DNA from: Caballeronia insecticola
GTDB lineage: Bacteria; Pseudomonadota; Gammaproteobacteria; Burkholderiales; Burkholderiaceae
Direction: 5' to 3'
DNA length: 64,000 nt
Assembly (NCBI RefSeq): GCF_000402035.1
Contig: NC_021294.1
Span: 1,031,715-1,095,714 of the forward strand
Under the pieces are notes generated by a model that saw only the letters and a program-made list of their open reading frames with translations, had not been told where the DNA came from and did not search any database. The translations under genes were made by a program, and so were the position numbers. Below are positions 22,883 to 34,436 of the stretch, one piece after another. The first letter of the stretch is position 1; the number at the start of each line of letters is the position of its first letter.

Positions 22883-23538
22883 GAACCGCCAGCGAAACAG
22901 CCCGATCCATCGCGGCGAGACTGCGCGGCCTGCTGCGCTCGGATCGTGGCAGCGTGTCCATCGAATTCGTGATCATCATCCCGATGATGCTGCTCGTGCT
23001 GCTCGGCTTCACCGAGATCTACCTGTATATGCGCGCGGTCACCGCCGTCGATCGCACGGCCTTCACGCTCGCCAATACCATCGGTCAGATGACCTCGATC
23101 ATCGCCGACAACAACGACACCACCGATGCGAACAGCTACGGCTCGCTGTGGCAGGACGCGGCGCTGCTCGCCGCACCGTATCAGTTGAAGGCGAACGGCA
23201 TGGTCTACGTGACGTTCCTGTGCGACCCGGACTCCAGCAACAAATGCAAGGACATGGACACCTCCATGACGGCGGTCACGCCGAAGATCCGCTGGACGGC
23301 CTCGCCGTCTTCATGGACCAACAGCAAAAGCTCGGGCATGGTGTCGAGGGTGTCGAGCACGAGTCCGCTGCCTACTTCGTGGCCGTTTCGCACCGGGGAT
23401 TCGGCGATCATCGTGGAAGTGTTTTTGTCGTACAACCCGTTCGTCATGACCTCCACGCTCATTTCGGGGATGCCGGGTCAGCAGACCGTGTACCGCCGCG
23501 TGTATGTGCGGCCGCGTGCGCCGCGAGCGTTCTACTGA
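22879..23538 (+). CDS. tadF: TadF-like pseudopilin
   Basis: 219 residues. The leader ends in LLRSDRGSVSIEFVIIIPMMLLVLLGFTEIYLYMR in outline, which has the same S-IEF-hydrophobic pattern as TadE but a longer extracytoplasmic domain with two cysteines near residues 114 and 121 (LCDPDSSNKC) that could form a disulfide. I assign TadF from order and architecture; it could equally be called a second TadE-like protein. The start overlaps the tadE stop. Confidence 0.85.
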   Translation: MRTASETARSIAARLRGLLRSDRGSVSIEFVIIIPMMLLVLLGFTEIYLYMRAVTAVDRTAFTLANTIGQMTSIIADNNDTTDANSYGSLWQDAALLAAPYQLKANGMVYVTFLCDPDSSNKCKDMDTSMTAVTPKIRWTASPSSWTNSKSSGMVSRVSSTSPLPTSWPFRTGDSAIIVEVFLSYNPFVMTSTLISGMPGQQTVYRRVYVRPRAPRAFY

Positions 23539-23593
23539 TGCTCGCGGGATCACGGACGCTCACATGCAAATCAAACGCAAAGGGTTCACGTTC

Positions 23594-25420
23594 ATGACGA
23601 TTTCGTCGACGCTCCGCTCATGCAGCCGTCTGCCGAAAGACGCAGAGGGCGGCGTCGCGATGATGTTCGCCATGTGCGCGAGCATCATGATCGGGTCCAT
23701 GTGCGTGGCGCTGGACTCGATCGACTACGTGATGACACAGGGCCATATGCAGATGGCGCTCGATGCGGCCACGCTGTCGTCGGGCGTCGATCTGCAACGC
23801 TACGGCAACACGCCGAGCGGCGCCAGCCTCGCCAACTGGCAGAAGGACGCGCGCGCGTACTACGACGCCAACAGTCCTTCCGGCATGATGGGCTTCACCA
23901 TGCCCGATGCCAACTTCTCGGCGAGCGTCTCGGGTGCGCCCGCCACGGGGCAGACCATTGCGCTGTCGGCGTCGGGATCGCTGCCTTTGCTCGCGCCGAA
24001 GGTTTTCACCCAGACCTCGGGCAGCGGCTCAGGCAGCGGCTCAGGCAGCGGCTCAGGCAGCGGTTCGGGCGGCACGCCCACGCCCGATACTTCGACGGTA
24101 TCCGCGAACAACACCGCCATGCGGCTGCCGCAAAGCACGCTGGAACTCGTGATGGTGCTGGACAACACCGGCTCGATGAACGATCCCGCCAACGGCAAGT
24201 CCGGCGCGAACAAGATGAGCGGCCTGAAGGATGCCGCCAATTCGCTGATCGGCGATCTCTTGCCGACCGGCACCACGACGAGCAAGAACTTTATCGGGCT
24301 GGTGCCGTTCGCGAGCACGGTCAACACGACGGGCGCGCTGCCGTCCACCGGCAGCTGGCTCAGTTCCGTGCTGCCGACCTACAACACGAGCGGCATCACG
24401 ACGGGCGCGTGGAGCGGCTGCCCGATCGAGCCGCGCACCGGCAACAATCTCTCGCCCGAGCCTTATTCGCCGACGGACTCGCGCAAATTCCAGCGCTACT
24501 ACTACAACGTGCCGCCGAGCAAGCTGCAGATCGTCACGTACAGTTCGTCGAGCCGGTACACCGCGTGCAACACGACGGGCAGTTCGTCGTCGTCCGTGTC
24601 GAGCGTTCCGGTGACGCTGGGCTCGTCGGGCTCGGCGAACAAGTGCAACAGTCCCGCCGCCGGTCAGGGCACCGGCATCGGCACGCAGTTCGACCAGACC
24701 AATACGAGCGGTCAAACGCTCACGCAGAATTCGAGTTGCCTCGCCACCTCGATGACCTTCCTCACGCAGAACGCGACGACGCTCACCACCGCCGTCGGCA
24801 AGATGACGCCGTCAGGCTCGACGATCATTCCGACGGGACTGCTGTGGGGCTGGCGCATGCTGGAGCCGTCGTGGTCGCAGAACCTGGCGGGCGCGAAAAA
24901 CGGCTGGATCTCGTCCGATCCGAGCCTGCCGAAACCGACCGACGGTTCCGTGCAGAATCTGCAGCGCGTGATGATCGTGCTCACCGACGGCCAGAACCAG
25001 ATCGGCGCGGCGGGCTCCATTCCGAATACGCTCTATTTCAACGGGCTCTCGGGCGTCGGGACCAACAGCCTCTCGGCGCCGACGGTGTTCCGGCCCGACG
25101 GCAGCAACATGTCGGACGCGCTCATGGACTCGTCGGAGTTGCACGGCGGCAATCCGATCGATACGTCGAGCGGCAACAACGCGGGCTATCCCGACGACGT
25201 GAACGCGTTCCAGTTAGCCATCTGCTCGGCGATCAAGGCGAGCGGCATCACGATCTATTCGATCACGTTCGGCGCATCGGCATCGAGTTCGAGCGCGCAG
25301 GTCACCATGCAGAACTGCGCGAGCCCGGGCAACTACTATCACGCGCCGGACAACACGACGCTCGACAACATCTTTCAGCAGATCGCCGGCAATCTGGGCG
25401 TGCTGCGCCTGACCAAATGA
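23594..25420 (+). CDS. tadG: TadG-like protein with von Willebrand A domain
   Basis: 608 residues from ATG 23594, which has AAGGG nine bases upstream; ATG 23564 is an in-frame alternative. The N-terminal helix (GGVAMMFAMCASIMIGSMCVALDSIDY) is followed by the TadG-type mQMALDAATLSSG segment. A Gly-Ser linker is encoded by a 12-base minisatellite at 24020-24067. The vWA domain begins with LELVMVLDNTGSMNDP (MIDAS DxTGS) near residue 185 and continues to the end, with TDGQNQIG near residue 465. Such tip or minor-pilin adhesins close many Tad operons. The 55-base gap after tadF is the first real spacing since cpaE. The next gene is on the other strand. Confidence 0.88.
   Translation: MTISSTLRSCSRLPKDAEGGVAMMFAMCASIMIGSMCVALDSIDYVMTQGHMQMALDAATLSSGVDLQRYGNTPSGASLANWQKDARAYYDANSPSGMMGFTMPDANFSASVSGAPATGQTIALSASGSLPLLAPKVFTQTSGSGSGSGSGSGSGSGSGGTPTPDTSTVSANNTAMRLPQSTLELVMVLDNTGSMNDPANGKSGANKMSGLKDAANSLIGDLLPTGTTTSKNFIGLVPFASTVNTTGALPSTGSWLSSVLPTYNTSGITTGAWSGCPIEPRTGNNLSPEPYSPTDSRKFQRYYYNVPPSKLQIVTYSSSSRYTACNTTGSSSSSVSSVPVTLGSSGSANKCNSPAAGQGTGIGTQFDQTNTSGQTLTQNSSCLATSMTFLTQNATTLTTAVGKMTPSGSTIIPTGLLWGWRMLEPSWSQNLAGAKNGWISSDPSLPKPTDGSVQNLQRVMIVLTDGQNQIGAAGSIPNTLYFNGLSGVGTNSLSAPTVFRPDGSNMSDALMDSSELHGGNPIDTSSGNNAGYPDDVNAFQLAICSAIKASGITIYSITFGASASSSSAQVTMQNCASPGNYYHAPDNTTLDNIFQQIAGNLGVLRLTK
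24020..24067 (+). repeat. 12-bp minisatellite encoding the TadG Gly-Ser linker
   Basis: Four tandem copies of GGCAGCGGCTCA (the last copy with two changes) are in frame and encode alternating Gly-Ser between the N-terminal pilin-like part and the vWA domain. Because the unit is a multiple of three, slippage would change linker length without breaking the gene. Confidence 0.9.
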
Positions 25421-31139: not shown

Positions 31140-31342
31140 CGGGCTCGATGGAGCGTTTCGGGCGAAAGAGCCGACATTATCGATGAATTGGGAAACTTGT
31201 TCCCTCCAGGACAAAAAAGCTGCTCACAACCACGTTTAGTTTCCCATCCACTGCTAAAAAACTCAAAAAACAGAGAAATACAACCTTCAAGGTCAGAACA
31301 TTGCTCTACCGATACGAAAAACGACGATATGGCGCTCTAAGA
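31140..31342. other. Upstream region of the liv operon, AT-rich
   Basis: No gene is visible. The base composition turns AT-rich compared with coding DNA. It must carry the minus-strand promoter of the liv operon. Inverted repeat GGGAA...TTCCC at 31190-31204 and a second TTTCCC nearby (31241 region) could be regulator sites, but I cannot name one. The first peptide-cassette leader begins just after, at 31343. Confidence 0.4.
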
Positions 31343-31455
31343 TCGGAATTGTCTTGGGCATGACAGAAAGCTCAATTGATAGACTTCGCCCGATTCTTTA
31401 AGCATTTAATCAGCATATCGAATCGTTTTTCAAATCTTTCACCTCAAGATTCATC

Positions 31456-31626
31456 ATGCAAAAGATCAAACGCGCGGAACTGGGTAACGTTGATGTCCCG
31501 CTGGCCGGTGGTATTTCCACCTCTCATGTCAGCGTCACCGTGCAGCATGGCAGCACCGTGTACCACACCGAAAAGACCGTCACCGGCCATAACGTGTCCA
31601 CCACCGTGACCGTCAGACTGCCCTGA
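31456..31626 (+). CDS. Small peptide A with double-glycine-type leader
   Basis: 56 residues, not recognised as a named family. Residues 1-19 read MQKIKRAELGNVDVPLAGG, which fits the double-glycine leader pattern (hydrophobic and acidic positions ending EL....LAGG) of peptides cleaved and exported by C39-peptidase ABC transporters. The remaining 37 residues are Val/Thr/Ser/His-rich with alternating beta-strand periodicity, have no cysteine and are weakly basic. Codon use is normal, and the third-position pattern and conservation with peptide B support a real gene. The ribosome site is weak (CAAGAT). It is followed by a hairpin and a strong terminator, so it is monocistronic. No exporter gene is visible nearby. 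A bacteriocin-like, signalling or surface peptide role is inference. Confidence 0.72.
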   Translation: MQKIKRAELGNVDVPLAGGISTSHVSVTVQHGSTVYHTEKTVTGHNVSTTVTVRLP

Positions 31627-31636
31627 GCAGTTTGAA

Positions 31637-31664
31637 CCACTCAATCACCAATTTGCTCGGGTGG
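31637..31664 (+). ncRNA. Conserved 3' UTR hairpin, copy A
   Basis: The stem CCACTC / GGGTGG (one G-T pair) has a 16-base loop, 10 bases after the peptide A stop. The corresponding element in copy B is CGCACTC / GAGTGCG. The C-G pair of copy A is a G-C pair in copy B, so the pairing is kept while the bases change, suggesting a selected RNA structure. Confidence 0.5.
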
Positions 31665-31749
31665 CGTCGGACTCATTAGATGTCACCAACGGTTGTGCGA
31701 ACGCCTTAGGCGCTCGAAAGCAATAACAACTGCATTTTTGTGCCCTTAT

Positions 31750-31784
31750 AACAGGATCGCATTGCGTGCAGGCGATCCTGTTTC
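31750..31784 (+). terminator. Intrinsic terminator of peptide cassette A
   Basis: The 11-bp perfect stem AACAGGATCGC / GCGATCCTGTT has a loop of 11 bases and is followed by T-rich TCTTTG. It is nearly identical to the terminator of cassette B, and it ends a transcript of roughly 350 bases that carries only the peptide gene. Confidence 0.85.
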
Positions 31785-31905
31785 TTTGTGCGGCCTCTCC
31801 CATTAGTCAAAAACGCGCTTTGAAGCCGTTGTGACTTGCATGCATTTTCCGCAGTGACGCAGTTAGTAATTCGTAATGTCTTGACGAAAGTCAATTTCTC
31901 ACGCC

Positions 31906-32110
31906 GTTCGATTCGCCATTCTGATGATCTATCAGGAACGCGAAATCATTGATCTCGGAGTGAACATGCTGCCCCACCCAATTTGCGCGGCGCAGATGCA
32001 AATCAAATTCCCGCACAGCGGCGCGCCCAGCCTCGCGGACCGCATATTTCTCCAACCGCACGGTGCATGAGGCGACGCCGCACCGCAAGACATACGCAAC
32101 CTCCATTTCT
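31906..32110 (+). pseudogene. Decayed fragment of a glutamine-synthetase-like gene
   Basis: The plus strand aligns with codons about 173-240 of the intact synthetase at 33102. Examples are CAAQMQIKF against GAAQMEINF, SLADRIFL against NLADRVFL and, after a two-base loss, NRTVHEATPHRKTYAT against KRTVREAALRHKMYAT. The fragment contains two adjacent TGA codons near 31922 and further frame changes, and it lacks both ends of the gene, so it cannot be functional. It lies between peptide cassettes A and B, while the intact gene lies after cassette B. A 78-residue reading frame on the opposite strand here is only its antisense. Confidence 0.8.
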
Positions 32111-32255
32111 AATCCGATACAAAGCAATCCTTATCAATTATCGGAATTGTCGCAATGAAAATAGATGGTCGAATTGATAGAATTCAGGCTGATTCTTTAA
32201 GCCTTTTATAAGCATATCGAATCTTTTTTCCAAAAATCACCTTCTGAGACTCAAC

Positions 32256-32405
32256 ATGCAAAAAATCGAACGTACGGAACTGAACTCCGCTGCTCTGGCA
32301 GGCGGCGCTACGAAGGGTCAGATCGGCATCACCATCGCTGTTACCGGCGTGCCGACCGAATCGTCGTCCTCCAGCACGTCCAACACCGTCATCATCAAGA
32401 GCTAA
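32256..32405 (+). CDS. Small peptide B with double-glycine-type leader
   Basis: 49 residues, paralogue of peptide A. Residues 1-17 read MQKIERTELNSAALAGG and share MQKI, R, EL and LAGG with peptide A at matching places, with two residues fewer before the LAGG. The 32-residue core begins ATKGQIGITIAVTGV, again beta-strand-like, followed by a run of serines and a hydrophobic end (NTVIIKS). There is no cysteine. Conservation is strongest in the leader and weaker in the core, the pattern expected when an exporter recognises the leader. The ribosome site is weak (TGAGAC). It is monocistronic, with its own hairpin and terminator. No product class can be assigned with certainty. Confidence 0.72.
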   Translation: MQKIERTELNSAALAGGATKGQIGITIAVTGVPTESSSSSTSNTVIIKS

Positions 32406-32420
32406 GCGTTTATTGAGTCA

Positions 32421-32446
32421 CGCACTCACCGCTTCGGTCGAGTGCG
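32421..32446 (+). ncRNA. Conserved 3' UTR hairpin, copy B
   Basis: Perfect 7-bp stem CGCACTC / GAGTGCG with a 12-base loop, 15 bases after the peptide B stop. It is positionally equivalent to 31637-31664 in copy A, with compensatory base changes. Confidence 0.5.
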
Positions 32447-32535
32447 AGTCTGACTCAATTGACGTCACTCACGGCTAAGCCGAACGCCTCAGTCATGCCG
32501 AAGCAATAGCCCCTCATTTGCTTTCATGACGCAAC

Positions 32536-32572
32536 AACAGGATCGCACTGCATGCAGGCGATCCTGTTTCTT
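32536..32572 (+). terminator. Intrinsic terminator of peptide cassette B
   Basis: The 11-bp stem AACAGGATCGC / GCGATCCTGTT is followed by TCTTC. The stem sequence is identical to that of cassette A and the loop differs by a few bases. Confidence 0.85.
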
Positions 32573-33101
32573 CATTCCCCCTTAGCGCCCTCACCAGCCG
32601 CCCTCATCAGCCGCCCTCATCAGCCGAAAACGCGGCTTGACGGCATTTATGGCTCGTATATGCTCGTCGTAGGGAAATTGTCGGCATCACGCAATCTCCC
32701 CAACGGAAATCACTTTCCCAGACGAGTTCATCGTGAAAGTCCAAAGCCCTCTGGCACGTCGGCGCATACGCCGGCCCTGCGCCGATCGCTGCGGCATGCT
32801 TCCTGGTTGCCGCTTCCTGTCGGTTATCACCGTCCTGTCTCGCCGCAGCGTGCGGCGTCGCAATTCCGTTGCCGCGCGCGCGTTCATCGCGGTGGATTGC
32901 GTCGGCGCCGCTTCGCTGCTGCCGTAGCGCCTCTCTCCGTTTCCCTTCGCTGACCGATTGGTCCGCGCGCACGCGTCTGCACGCGTGAAACGCGCGCGCC
33001 GTCTTTCGCCGCGCCTTTGCGATGCGTCGCATGGGCCATGGCAGCGCGCGCCTGTCCGAAACGAAACGAAAGCGAAACGAAAACGCTACGAGAGAACCGC
33101 C
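32573..33101 (+). other. Gene-free region upstream of the synthetase gene
   Basis: No convincing gene is seen. It holds a 13-base tandem repeat CAGCCGCCCTCAT (32595-32607, 32608-32620 and a partial third to 32626). It also contains the homologous tail of the peptide cassette to about 32664 and then GC-rich sequence with short frames of shadow-like composition. The synthetase promoter should be here. A TGGCAC at 32753 is not followed by GC at the spacing a sigma-54 site needs. Confidence 0.4.
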
Positions 33102-34436
33102 ATGGAACGCATCGACGAATTCCTCCGAAAACACCGCATCACCGAGATTGAAGCCATCATTCCCGACATGGCCGGCACCGCGCGCGGCAAAATCATTCCG
33201 CGCAGCAAGTTCGAGTTGGGCGAATCGATGCGCCTGCCGCAAGCCGTAATGATGCAGACCGTCACCGGCGACTACCCCGACGACGGCCGCTTCAGCGGCG
33301 TCACCGATCCCGACATGGTCTGCGTGCCCGATCCCGCGACGATCCGCCTGATTCCATGGGCCGTCGATCCGACCGCGCAGGTCATCCACGATTGCGTGCA
33401 TTTCGACGGCACGCCCGTCGCCATTTCGCCGCGCCGCGTGCTGCGGCAAGTGCTGGAAATGTATGCGGAGAAAGGCTGGCGTCCCGTGGTCGCGCCCGAA
33501 CTCGAGTTCTTTCTCGTCGACATGAACCGTGATCCCGACTTGCCGCTGCAACCGCCTGTCGGCAGAACGGGACGCGCGGAAACCGGCCGCCAGGCGTATT
33601 CAATCGACGCGGTCAACGAGTTCGATCCGCTCTTCGAAGACATCTACGAGTACTGCGAGGTGCAGGAACTCGAAGTGGACACGCTGATCCACGAAGTCGG
33701 CGCGGCGCAGATGGAAATCAACTTCATGCACGGCGACGCGCTCAACCTCGCTGACCGCGTGTTCCTCTTCAAGCGCACGGTGCGCGAGGCGGCGCTGCGC
33801 CACAAGATGTACGCCACCTTCATGGCCAAGCCGATGGAGTGCGAACCCGGCTCGGCCATGCACGTGCATCAGAACATCGTCGATGAAGAAACGGGCCGCA
33901 ATCTCTTCACGAATCGCGGTGGCGAGCCGACCGGCCTGTTCTACAGCTACATCGCGGGATTGCAGAAATACACGCCCGCGCTCATGCCGATCTTCGCGCC
34001 GTATATCAATTCGTATCGGCGGCTCTCGCGTTTCATGGCCGCGCCGGTCAATGTGCAATGGGGTTACGACAATCGCACGGTCGGCTTTCGCGTGCCGCAC
34101 GCGTCGCCCGCGGCGCGGCGCATCGAGAACCGCATACCGGGCGTCGACTGCAATCCGTATCTGGCGATCGCGGCCACGCTCGCCGCAGGCTATCTCGGCA
34201 TGACGCAGCATCTGGAGCCGACCGCGCCGCTCGCGAGCGACGGTTATCGACAGCCTTATCAGCTGCCGCGCAATCTCGAAGAAGGCCTGACGCTGATGGG
34301 CGCGTGCGAACCGCTGGCCGCGATGCTCGGCGAGACCTTCGTGCGCGCGTATCTCGCGCTGAAGGAGACCGAATACGAAGCGTTTTTCCGCGTGATCAGT
34401 TCGTGGGAACGCAAGCATTTGCTGCTGCACGTCTAA
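33102..34436 (+). CDS. puuA: Glutamine-synthetase-family enzyme, probable gamma-glutamylputrescine synthetase
   Basis: 444 residues. The N-terminal GS beta-grasp domain (EIEAIIPDMAGTARGKIIP) and catalytic domain are complete, including metal ligands in PELEFFLVD, the EVGAAQMEINF segment and SAMHVHQNI. The ATP/ammonia region GYDNRTVGFRVPHASPAARRIENRIPGVDCNPYLAIAA is also present. The pattern fits the PuuA/SpuI branch, which joins glutamate to putrescine or other polyamines, rather than nitrogen-assimilating GlnA. A polyamine aminotransferase gene follows after 22 bases, supporting this role. ATG 33102 begins the conserved MERIDEFL; an in-frame upstream extension is rejected. A fragment of a second copy lies at 31906. 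Confidence 0.85.
   Translation: MERIDEFLRKHRITEIEAIIPDMAGTARGKIIPRSKFELGESMRLPQAVMMQTVTGDYPDDGRFSGVTDPDMVCVPDPATIRLIPWAVDPTAQVIHDCVHFDGTPVAISPRRVLRQVLEMYAEKGWRPVVAPELEFFLVDMNRDPDLPLQPPVGRTGRAETGRQAYSIDAVNEFDPLFEDIYEYCEVQELEVDTLIHEVGAAQMEINFMHGDALNLADRVFLFKRTVREAALRHKMYATFMAKPMECEPGSAMHVHQNIVDEETGRNLFTNRGGEPTGLFYSYIAGLQKYTPALMPIFAPYINSYRRLSRFMAAPVNVQWGYDNRTVGFRVPHASPAARRIENRIPGVDCNPYLAIAATLAAGYLGMTQHLEPTAPLASDGYRQPYQLPRNLEEGLTLMGACEPLAAMLGETFVRAYLALKETEYEAFFRVISSWERKHLLLHV

What the first reader, a model, noticed from the sequence alone, without database searches (positions are those of the whole stretch)
31343..32572. Two paralogous, monocistronic double-glycine-leader peptides in duplicated cassettes
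Seen: two very short genes (56 and 49 codons) with matching leaders ending LAGG, different beta-strand-like, cysteine-free cores, the same upstream blocks at the same spacing, and near-identical terminators. Established: leaders ending GG after an EL motif are recognised and cut by C39-peptidase ABC exporters (PCAT/ComA/CvaB types). Inference: a family of exported bacteriocin-like, signalling or surface peptides, each expressed from its own short transcript and supplied by an exporter elsewhere in the genome. Conserved leader with divergent core is the expected signature. I know of no named family with these cores.
Basis: partly seen in the sequence, partly recalled or inferred. Interest (0 to 1): 0.82.

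Follow-up and report, generated by a model that had tools for sequence, protein, structure and literature searches.

The report
Two stray double-glycine export peptides
Two very short genes in an insect gut symbiont belong to a large, apparently undescribed family of small export-type peptides that in related bacteria travel with their own exporter and a fatty-acyl-transferase-like protein, but in this strain that exporter's genes are split apart.

Summary
Two small genes (31456-31626, 32256-32405) carry matching double-glycine leaders inside duplicated cassettes (68% over 424 columns), each followed by a terminator-like hairpin. The genome's size matches Caballeronia insecticola RPE64. The leader defines a family: about 120 distinct sequences in the loci I fetched. 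In 54 of 59 loci found through an LpxL-like protein (ACYL) the order is peptide, ACYL, HlyD adaptor, C39 ABC exporter, TolC. Lysine is third after GG in 112 of 121 peptides, and 55 of 57 peptide-bearing loci have a peptide starting with cysteine after GG. The window cores share the family's C-terminal beta-like motif, so they are less divergent than claimed. The pair sits in a 1.4-kb insertion absent at the same site in three relatives. In this genome the matching C39 exporter exists, but its HlyD gene is split: one part fused to a fimbrial usher, the other 711 kb away. Export of the pair is plausible, not assured. Most likely they are orphan members of an exported, probably surface-acting peptide family; acylation before export is an untested, interesting possibility. 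New variant of a known kind.

The parts
31456..31626 (+). peptide gene A, 56 aa; leader 31456-31512 (19 aa, ends LAGG), core 37 aa without Lys at +3
32256..32405 (+). peptide gene B, 49 aa; leader 32256-32306 (17 aa, ends LAGG), core 32 aa with Lys at +3
31374..31786 (+). cassette A (upstream block, gene, 3' region, hairpin)
   Evidence: blastn 68% to cassette B, E 5e-27
32172..32572 (+). cassette B
31392..31424 (+). upstream block of A, shared with B
32191..32223 (+). upstream block of B
31750..31782 (+). terminator-like hairpin of A, -18.8 kcal/mol
32536..32568 (+). terminator-like hairpin of B, -21.6 kcal/mol
31951..32118 (+). degenerate fragment matching the downstream gene at window 33666-33835 (glutamine synthetase-like, named from recall)
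31197..32625 (.). inserted segment holding both cassettes; 41, 21 and 51 bases stand there in three relatives

Best explanation
The two genes are orphan members of a Burkholderiaceae family of very short secreted-type peptides. Shown: a common leader (MQKI[DE]R..L.....[VIL]AGG), a common core pattern, and in relatives a standing gene order of peptide, LpxL-like protein (ACYL), HlyD adaptor, C39 ABC exporter and TolC channel. Inferred: the precursor is bound by its leader, cut after GG by the C39 domain in the cytoplasm, and the core leaves through the HlyD-TolC channel; in relatives ACYL acts on the core's N-terminal Cys/Lys region first; the serine-rich, beta-strand-like cores act at or near the cell surface rather than as diffusible toxins. 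In this strain a cassette came to lie between two conserved genes and was duplicated (insertion shown, order of events inferred); the exporter operon is split, so whether the pair is still exported is uncertain.
For: Both genes score with a leader HMM built without this genome. 146 kept leader hits, 121 distinct, in the fetched loci. Seven strong copies in this genome: two in the window, five at C4:1209919-1213746. ACYL-anchored scan: 59 loci; 57 of 59 have a peptide and 54 of 59 the order peptide-ACYL-HlyD-PCAT-TolC by tblastn presence. Peptide (E<1e-5) and ACYL in the genus: 15 both, 3 peptide only, 1 ACYL only, 39 neither, of 58; Fisher p 4e-10, 1e-8 without the three seed genomes. dN/dS 0.04-0.18 for leaders and 0.13-0.33 for cores in three Caballeronia ortholog sets. 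C39 exporter in own genome aligned to PCAT1. Empty site in three relatives.
Against: HlyD of the matching exporter is split in this genome: residues 1-94 at L009, 218-396 fused to usher residues 1-278 at L012. The window pair has no ortholog, so its own selection cannot be measured. Peptide A is weak (E 0.0029), lacks Lys+3 and has a longer leader. No clear promoter. No transcript or peptide was seen. The surface role is inferred; a usher lies near only 17 of 59 loci. Core dN/dS was 0.66 in the one Paraburkholderia set of three sequences.
Confidence: 0.6

Rival explanations
1. The pair, and the whole system in this strain, is decaying: lineage-specific copies left without a working exporter.
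For: Split HlyD; no Cys+1 peptide among the seven copies, though 55 of 57 peptide-bearing ACYL loci have one; peptide A is among the weaker leader scores (1.2e-4; kept hits run from about 2e-12 to 7e-4); related genome G044 keeps peptides beside fimbrial genes with no ACYL, HlyD, PCAT or TolC match in the 9 kb held and no ACYL in the genome.
Against: Both frames, upstream blocks and hairpins are intact although the cassettes differ at 32% of columns; peptides outside the operon are also kept in relatives whose operon has all parts at full length by tblastn, such as G040 (L085, L160) and G048 (L086, L161); a second C39 transporter exists.
Confidence: 0.35
2. Bacteriocins of the class II microcin kind, used against rival bacteria.
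For: GG leaders with C39 transporter, HlyD and TolC, as reviewed for class II microcins (PMC10233263, passages).
Against: Of 57 clusters among 578 small ORFs around the first peptide, the 25 largest were examined and only two span Caballeronia and the other genera: the peptides themselves and an antisense frame inside ACYL (36 of 36); 38 of 57 gaps between last peptide and ACYL are at most 145 bases; cores of 32 and 37 aa are below the 5-10 kDa given for class II microcins; pairwise culture competitions of Caballeronia strains showed no clear antagonism (PMC12632191, passages).
Confidence: 0.25
3. Peptide signals read by neighbouring cells.
For: Short cores, dispersed copies, C39 export as in ComA-type systems (recalled).
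Against: Several near-identical paralogs per genome. I found no receptor, but most of the neighbour clusters were not annotated by family, so this is hardly tested.
Confidence: 0.1

Closest known systems
EbfG1-4 / PteB of Synechococcus elongatus (PMC4997328, passages; a matrix/amyloid paper PMC9981879 seen in the listing and start of abstract only)
   Same: Small GG-motif proteins, several redundant copies, C39 peptidase transporter, role in biofilm rather than killing
   Different: Precursors are 9-10 kDa; no ACYL partner mentioned in the passages; no sequence comparison was made here
Cdz system of Caulobacter (PMC5380434, passages)
   Same: Type I secretion of small leader-bearing proteins that stay on the producer surface
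   Different: Glycine-zipper cores, immunity protein CdzI, no obvious modification enzyme in the cluster
Selidamides and nostolysamides (PMC13060382, passages)
   Same: Ribosomal peptides whose core side chain near the N-terminus (Lys1) is fatty-acylated by a cluster enzyme
   Different: There the enzyme is a GNAT with a lanthipeptide synthetase; here an LpxL-like protein, acylation unproven
DAG-RiPPs (PMC12636315, passages)
   Same: Mature peptide with an N-terminal Cys
   Different: Those have a lipoprotein signal sequence and use Lgt/LspA/Lnt; here a GG leader and C39 exporter, lipidation unproven
Class II microcins (PMC10233263, passages)
   Same: GG leader, C39 transporter, adaptor, TolC
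   Different: Smaller cores; no recurrent immunity gene found
Lipid A acyltransferases LpxL/LpxM (PF03279)
   Same: C-terminal half of ACYL matches an LpxL-type profile weakly
   Different: Catalytic HX4E/D (recalled) reads HX4Y in 24 of 24 ACYL

Membership tests
GG-leader substrates of C39 exporters | Leader ending in GG or GA after a conserved hydrophobic/EL pattern | tested here: met
GG-leader substrates of C39 exporters | C39 transporter in the same genome | tested here: met
   (2 matches over cut-off)
GG-leader substrates of C39 exporters | Complete export complex in this genome | tested here: inconclusive
   HlyD of the matching system split; second C39 transporter present
GG-leader substrates of C39 exporters | Cleavage after GG and export | not testable with these tools
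   needs biochemistry
Class II microcin | Adjacent immunity protein of 51-216 aa | tested here: inconclusive
   none spans both genera among the 25 largest of 57 clusters; lineage-limited candidates remain, such as a 22-locus cluster with a hydrophobic start, and immunity proteins need not be conserved
Class II microcin | Mature size about 5-10 kDa | tested here: not met
   cores 32 and 37 aa; size range from PMC10233263
Class II microcin | Kills related bacteria | not testable with these tools
   -
NHLP/NHLM export system | Transporter over the NHLM_micro_ABC1 cut-off | tested here: not met
   343.6 and 346.5 bits against 853.3
Selidamide-like acylated peptide | GNAT acyltransferase in the cluster | tested here: inconclusive
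   ACYL shows no GNAT family; other neighbours were not all annotated
Selidamide-like acylated peptide | Acylable side chain near the core N-terminus | tested here: inconclusive
   Lys+3 in 112 of 121, in peptide B, not in A
LpxL/LPLAT acyltransferase (for ACYL) | PF03279 over cut-off | tested here: not met
   13.3 against 22.3 bits for the first member; 3 of 24 members match at E<=1
LpxL/LPLAT acyltransferase (for ACYL) | HX4D/E catalytic motif (recalled) | tested here: not met
   HX4Y in 24 of 24; opposite HX4E of two own LpxL proteins
LpxL/LPLAT acyltransferase (for ACYL) | LPLAT fold | not tested

The most novel reading that the evidence does not exclude
The family is a new class of lipidated ribosomal mini-peptides: ACYL, an LpxL-related enzyme with HX4Y in place of HX4E, puts a fatty acid on the core's N-terminal Cys1 or Lys3 in the cytoplasm, the C39 exporter then trims and ships the lipopeptide, and Cys1 members anchor or nucleate while Cys-free members such as the window pair add on as beta-strand subunits.
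Probability: 0.28. Interest if true: 0.78.

Novelty: new variant of a known kind. Interest (0 to 1): 0.58.

Why it matters
It outlines a widespread, unnamed export-peptide system in Paraburkholderia and Caballeronia, with a partner protein that I know from no other peptide exporter. If ACYL acylates the cores, it would be a new route to ribosomal lipopeptides. C. insecticola is a model gut symbiont; a split operon beside retained orphan peptides makes loss, use of another exporter, or replacement directly testable.

Tried and rejected
Tried without result: Pfam, NCBIfam and PADLOC for the window peptides (nothing over a cut-off; two NCBIfam matches at 0.02-0.09 to enzymes taken as chance); Rfam over 31200-32700 (0); PDB sequence search with the ACYL profile at E up to 10 (0); hhalign of ACYL against a single LpxL (probability 0.3, no support). 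Against 28 LpxL-type sequences hhalign gave E 7e-4 but a probability of only 27% over the C-terminal half, reversed control E 0.1, so relatedness is likely, not strong; at least three of the 28 rows look like wrong-frame picks. In one search the invariance of Y150 is circular for 55 of 79 rows, which I chose by that motif, and the 28 LpxL rows were chosen by HX4D/E; I rely on the 24 rows. The scan also used a pattern holding this motif. The leader HMM was seeded with leaders that include the two window genes and used a nominal database size, so its E-values are not independent; one search repeats the test without this genome.

Rejected: chance ORFs; a dispersed repeat (block found only twice in the genome); unrelated cores; NHLM system; the SCIFF match of one typed peptide (19.7 bits against a cut-off of 50). 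Rows dropped from the census: three of 149; one kept row (L132, minus strand) is noise, so Lys+3 is 112 of 120 without it. The ten paper searches listed no title or abstract start describing this family; most subscription papers are not held.

Full report
Where it lies. The window is G000:C4:1031715-1095714 of a genome of 6,964,487 bases in 5 contigs, C4 being 1,465,356 long. These are exactly the genome and chromosome 2 sizes printed for Caballeronia insecticola (PMC10809759, passages), the bean-bug gut symbiont; I take the genome to be RPE64.

The observation. Both genes, leaders, cores, upstream blocks and hairpins are as described. The two cassettes are one duplicated unit: 290 of 424 aligned columns identical, E 5e-27. 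A leader HMM built from 90 leaders of other genomes ranks them first and second of 1872 ORF starts in the window, B at 1.4e-7 and A at 0.0029; the next real ORF is at 3.4 and the best shuffled one at 0.45. Between the cassettes lies a 168-base fragment resembling the downstream gene at 33666-33835 (76%; 74-75% to the same gene in three relatives). In those three relatives the flanks of this site stand 41, 21 and 51 bases apart, against 1429, 1409 and 1439 in the window. None of the 57 other genomes of the genus matched the peptide parts of the query, with five candidates scored per genome. So the pair is a lineage-specific insertion; that duplication followed insertion is inferred.

The family. 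The same genome has five further copies at C4:1209919-1213746; two of them lack an ATG at the usual place and start at TTG or an upstream GTG in my reading. A profile of seven peptides, three loci of which are from this genome, found hits at E<1e-5 in 18 of 58 genus genomes. In the protein search 15 hits passed, and the two with an organism name are Caballeronia cordobensis, hypothetical or uncharacterized. Next to copies in relatives stood a gene with no Pfam family, which I call ACYL because some sources name its relatives lauroyl/myristoyl or lysophospholipid acyltransferase. It occurs in 16 of 58 genus genomes, three with a stop inside the match; in 37 of 299 family genomes in 4 of 25 genera, three of the 37 being weak matches that make up the fourth genus; and in 1 of 274 drawn across the class, this genome itself. 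A scan of genome contigs with 24 ACYL sequences gave 59 loci, by record title mainly Paraburkholderia, Caballeronia and Burkholderia sp., with one Cupriavidus and one Rhodanobacter.

Anatomy in relatives. Of 59 loci, 57 carry at least one leader hit within 6 kb on the same strand (misses: L088, a broken locus, and L136, whose candidate ends AGA), and 54 show the order peptide-ACYL-HlyD-PCAT-TolC by tblastn presence, which does not test intactness; 76-310 bases lie between last peptide and the ACYL match in 55 of 57. Pfam confirms HlyD, Peptidase_C39 with ABC domains, and OEP in the one locus sent (L013). A chaperone-usher match lies within 10 kb in 17 of 59.

Core grammar. Among 121 distinct peptides Lys is third after GG in 112 and Cys is first in 60: 59 of 88 from ACYL loci, 1 of 31 from other loci, 0 of 2 in the window; 44 of the 88 begin Cys-Cys. 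At least one Cys-first peptide is present in 55 of 57 peptide-bearing loci; the exceptions are L102 (Cys second) and L141, whose ACYL and TolC match only in pieces. Against a strict link, L138 is also in pieces and keeps its CCK peptide. Caballeronia adds Cys-free peptides; cores without Cys at +1 hold 50% Ser/Thr/Asn against 29% in the others. A beta-like motif by my loose pattern is in 67 of 121. A protein search with 16 Cys-first peptides gave 72 hits among 947 candidates, partly the same genes; the names shown are hypothetical or uncharacterized, once 'Six-cysteine peptide'.

Selection. In three Caballeronia ortholog sets the leader dN/dS is 0.04, 0.18 and 0.04 and the core 0.24, 0.13 and 0.33; in three Paraburkholderia sequences leader 0 and core 0.66. 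The family is real coding sequence; the window pair has no ortholog to test.

ACYL. All 24 aligned members have PFH[YF]VSQY (H145, Y150) where two LpxL proteins of this genome have HX4E. Pfam Lip_A_acyltrans is only hinted at (13.3 bits against 22.3). That ACYL is an acyltransferase is inferred; that it acts on the peptide rests on gene order and the conserved Cys1/Lys3.

State of the system here. L012 holds FimA, chaperone, a 490-aa frame made of usher residues 1-278 and HlyD residues 218-396, then PCAT, TolC and TetR matches; L009/L010 hold tip and fimbrial matches, five peptides, ACYL and HlyD residues 1-94, 711 kb away. After the HlyD stub I read a transposase by eye; the frame I sent to Pfam there gave no family, so this is unverified. 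No copy in this genome is Cys-first. A second C39 transporter of 1040 aa exists and could in principle serve.

Judgement. For this strain function is doubtful. I favour surface-acting exported peptides over bacteriocins because cores are small and conserved, no immunity gene was found that spans both genera (weak evidence), and the nearest studied parallels, EbfG and Cdz, work at the surface; this is inference.

Noticed in passing
L012:8357-9829: In-frame chimera of fimbrial usher N-terminus and HlyD C-terminus, 490 aa, the scar of a rearrangement that split the exporter operon.
   Followed up: partly
window 31951-32118: Degenerate fragment of the downstream glutamine-synthetase-like gene (name recalled) between the two cassettes.
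   Followed up: partly
L157:6253-6462, L156, L168, L169: A distinct orphan sub-family with the same leader; three of the four share the tail ATSVITVNGQQVINQTVTF and L156 a variant of it.
   Followed up: no
L066, L068, L071, L162-L164: Single orphan peptides of one type (MIKI/MINI... STKSSSS or alike); in L066, L068 and L071 an eda-like frame (named from recall) lies beside them.
   Followed up: no
L088, L138, L141: Symbiont genomes (by record title) in which parts of the peptide-export operon match only in pieces.
   Followed up: partly
L011:7676-10798: A 1040-aa C39 ABC transporter with a long N-terminal part, a second C39 system of this genome.
   Followed up: no
window 23504-25420: 638-aa ORF with a run of Gly-Ser repeats, a possible length-variable tract.
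   Followed up: no
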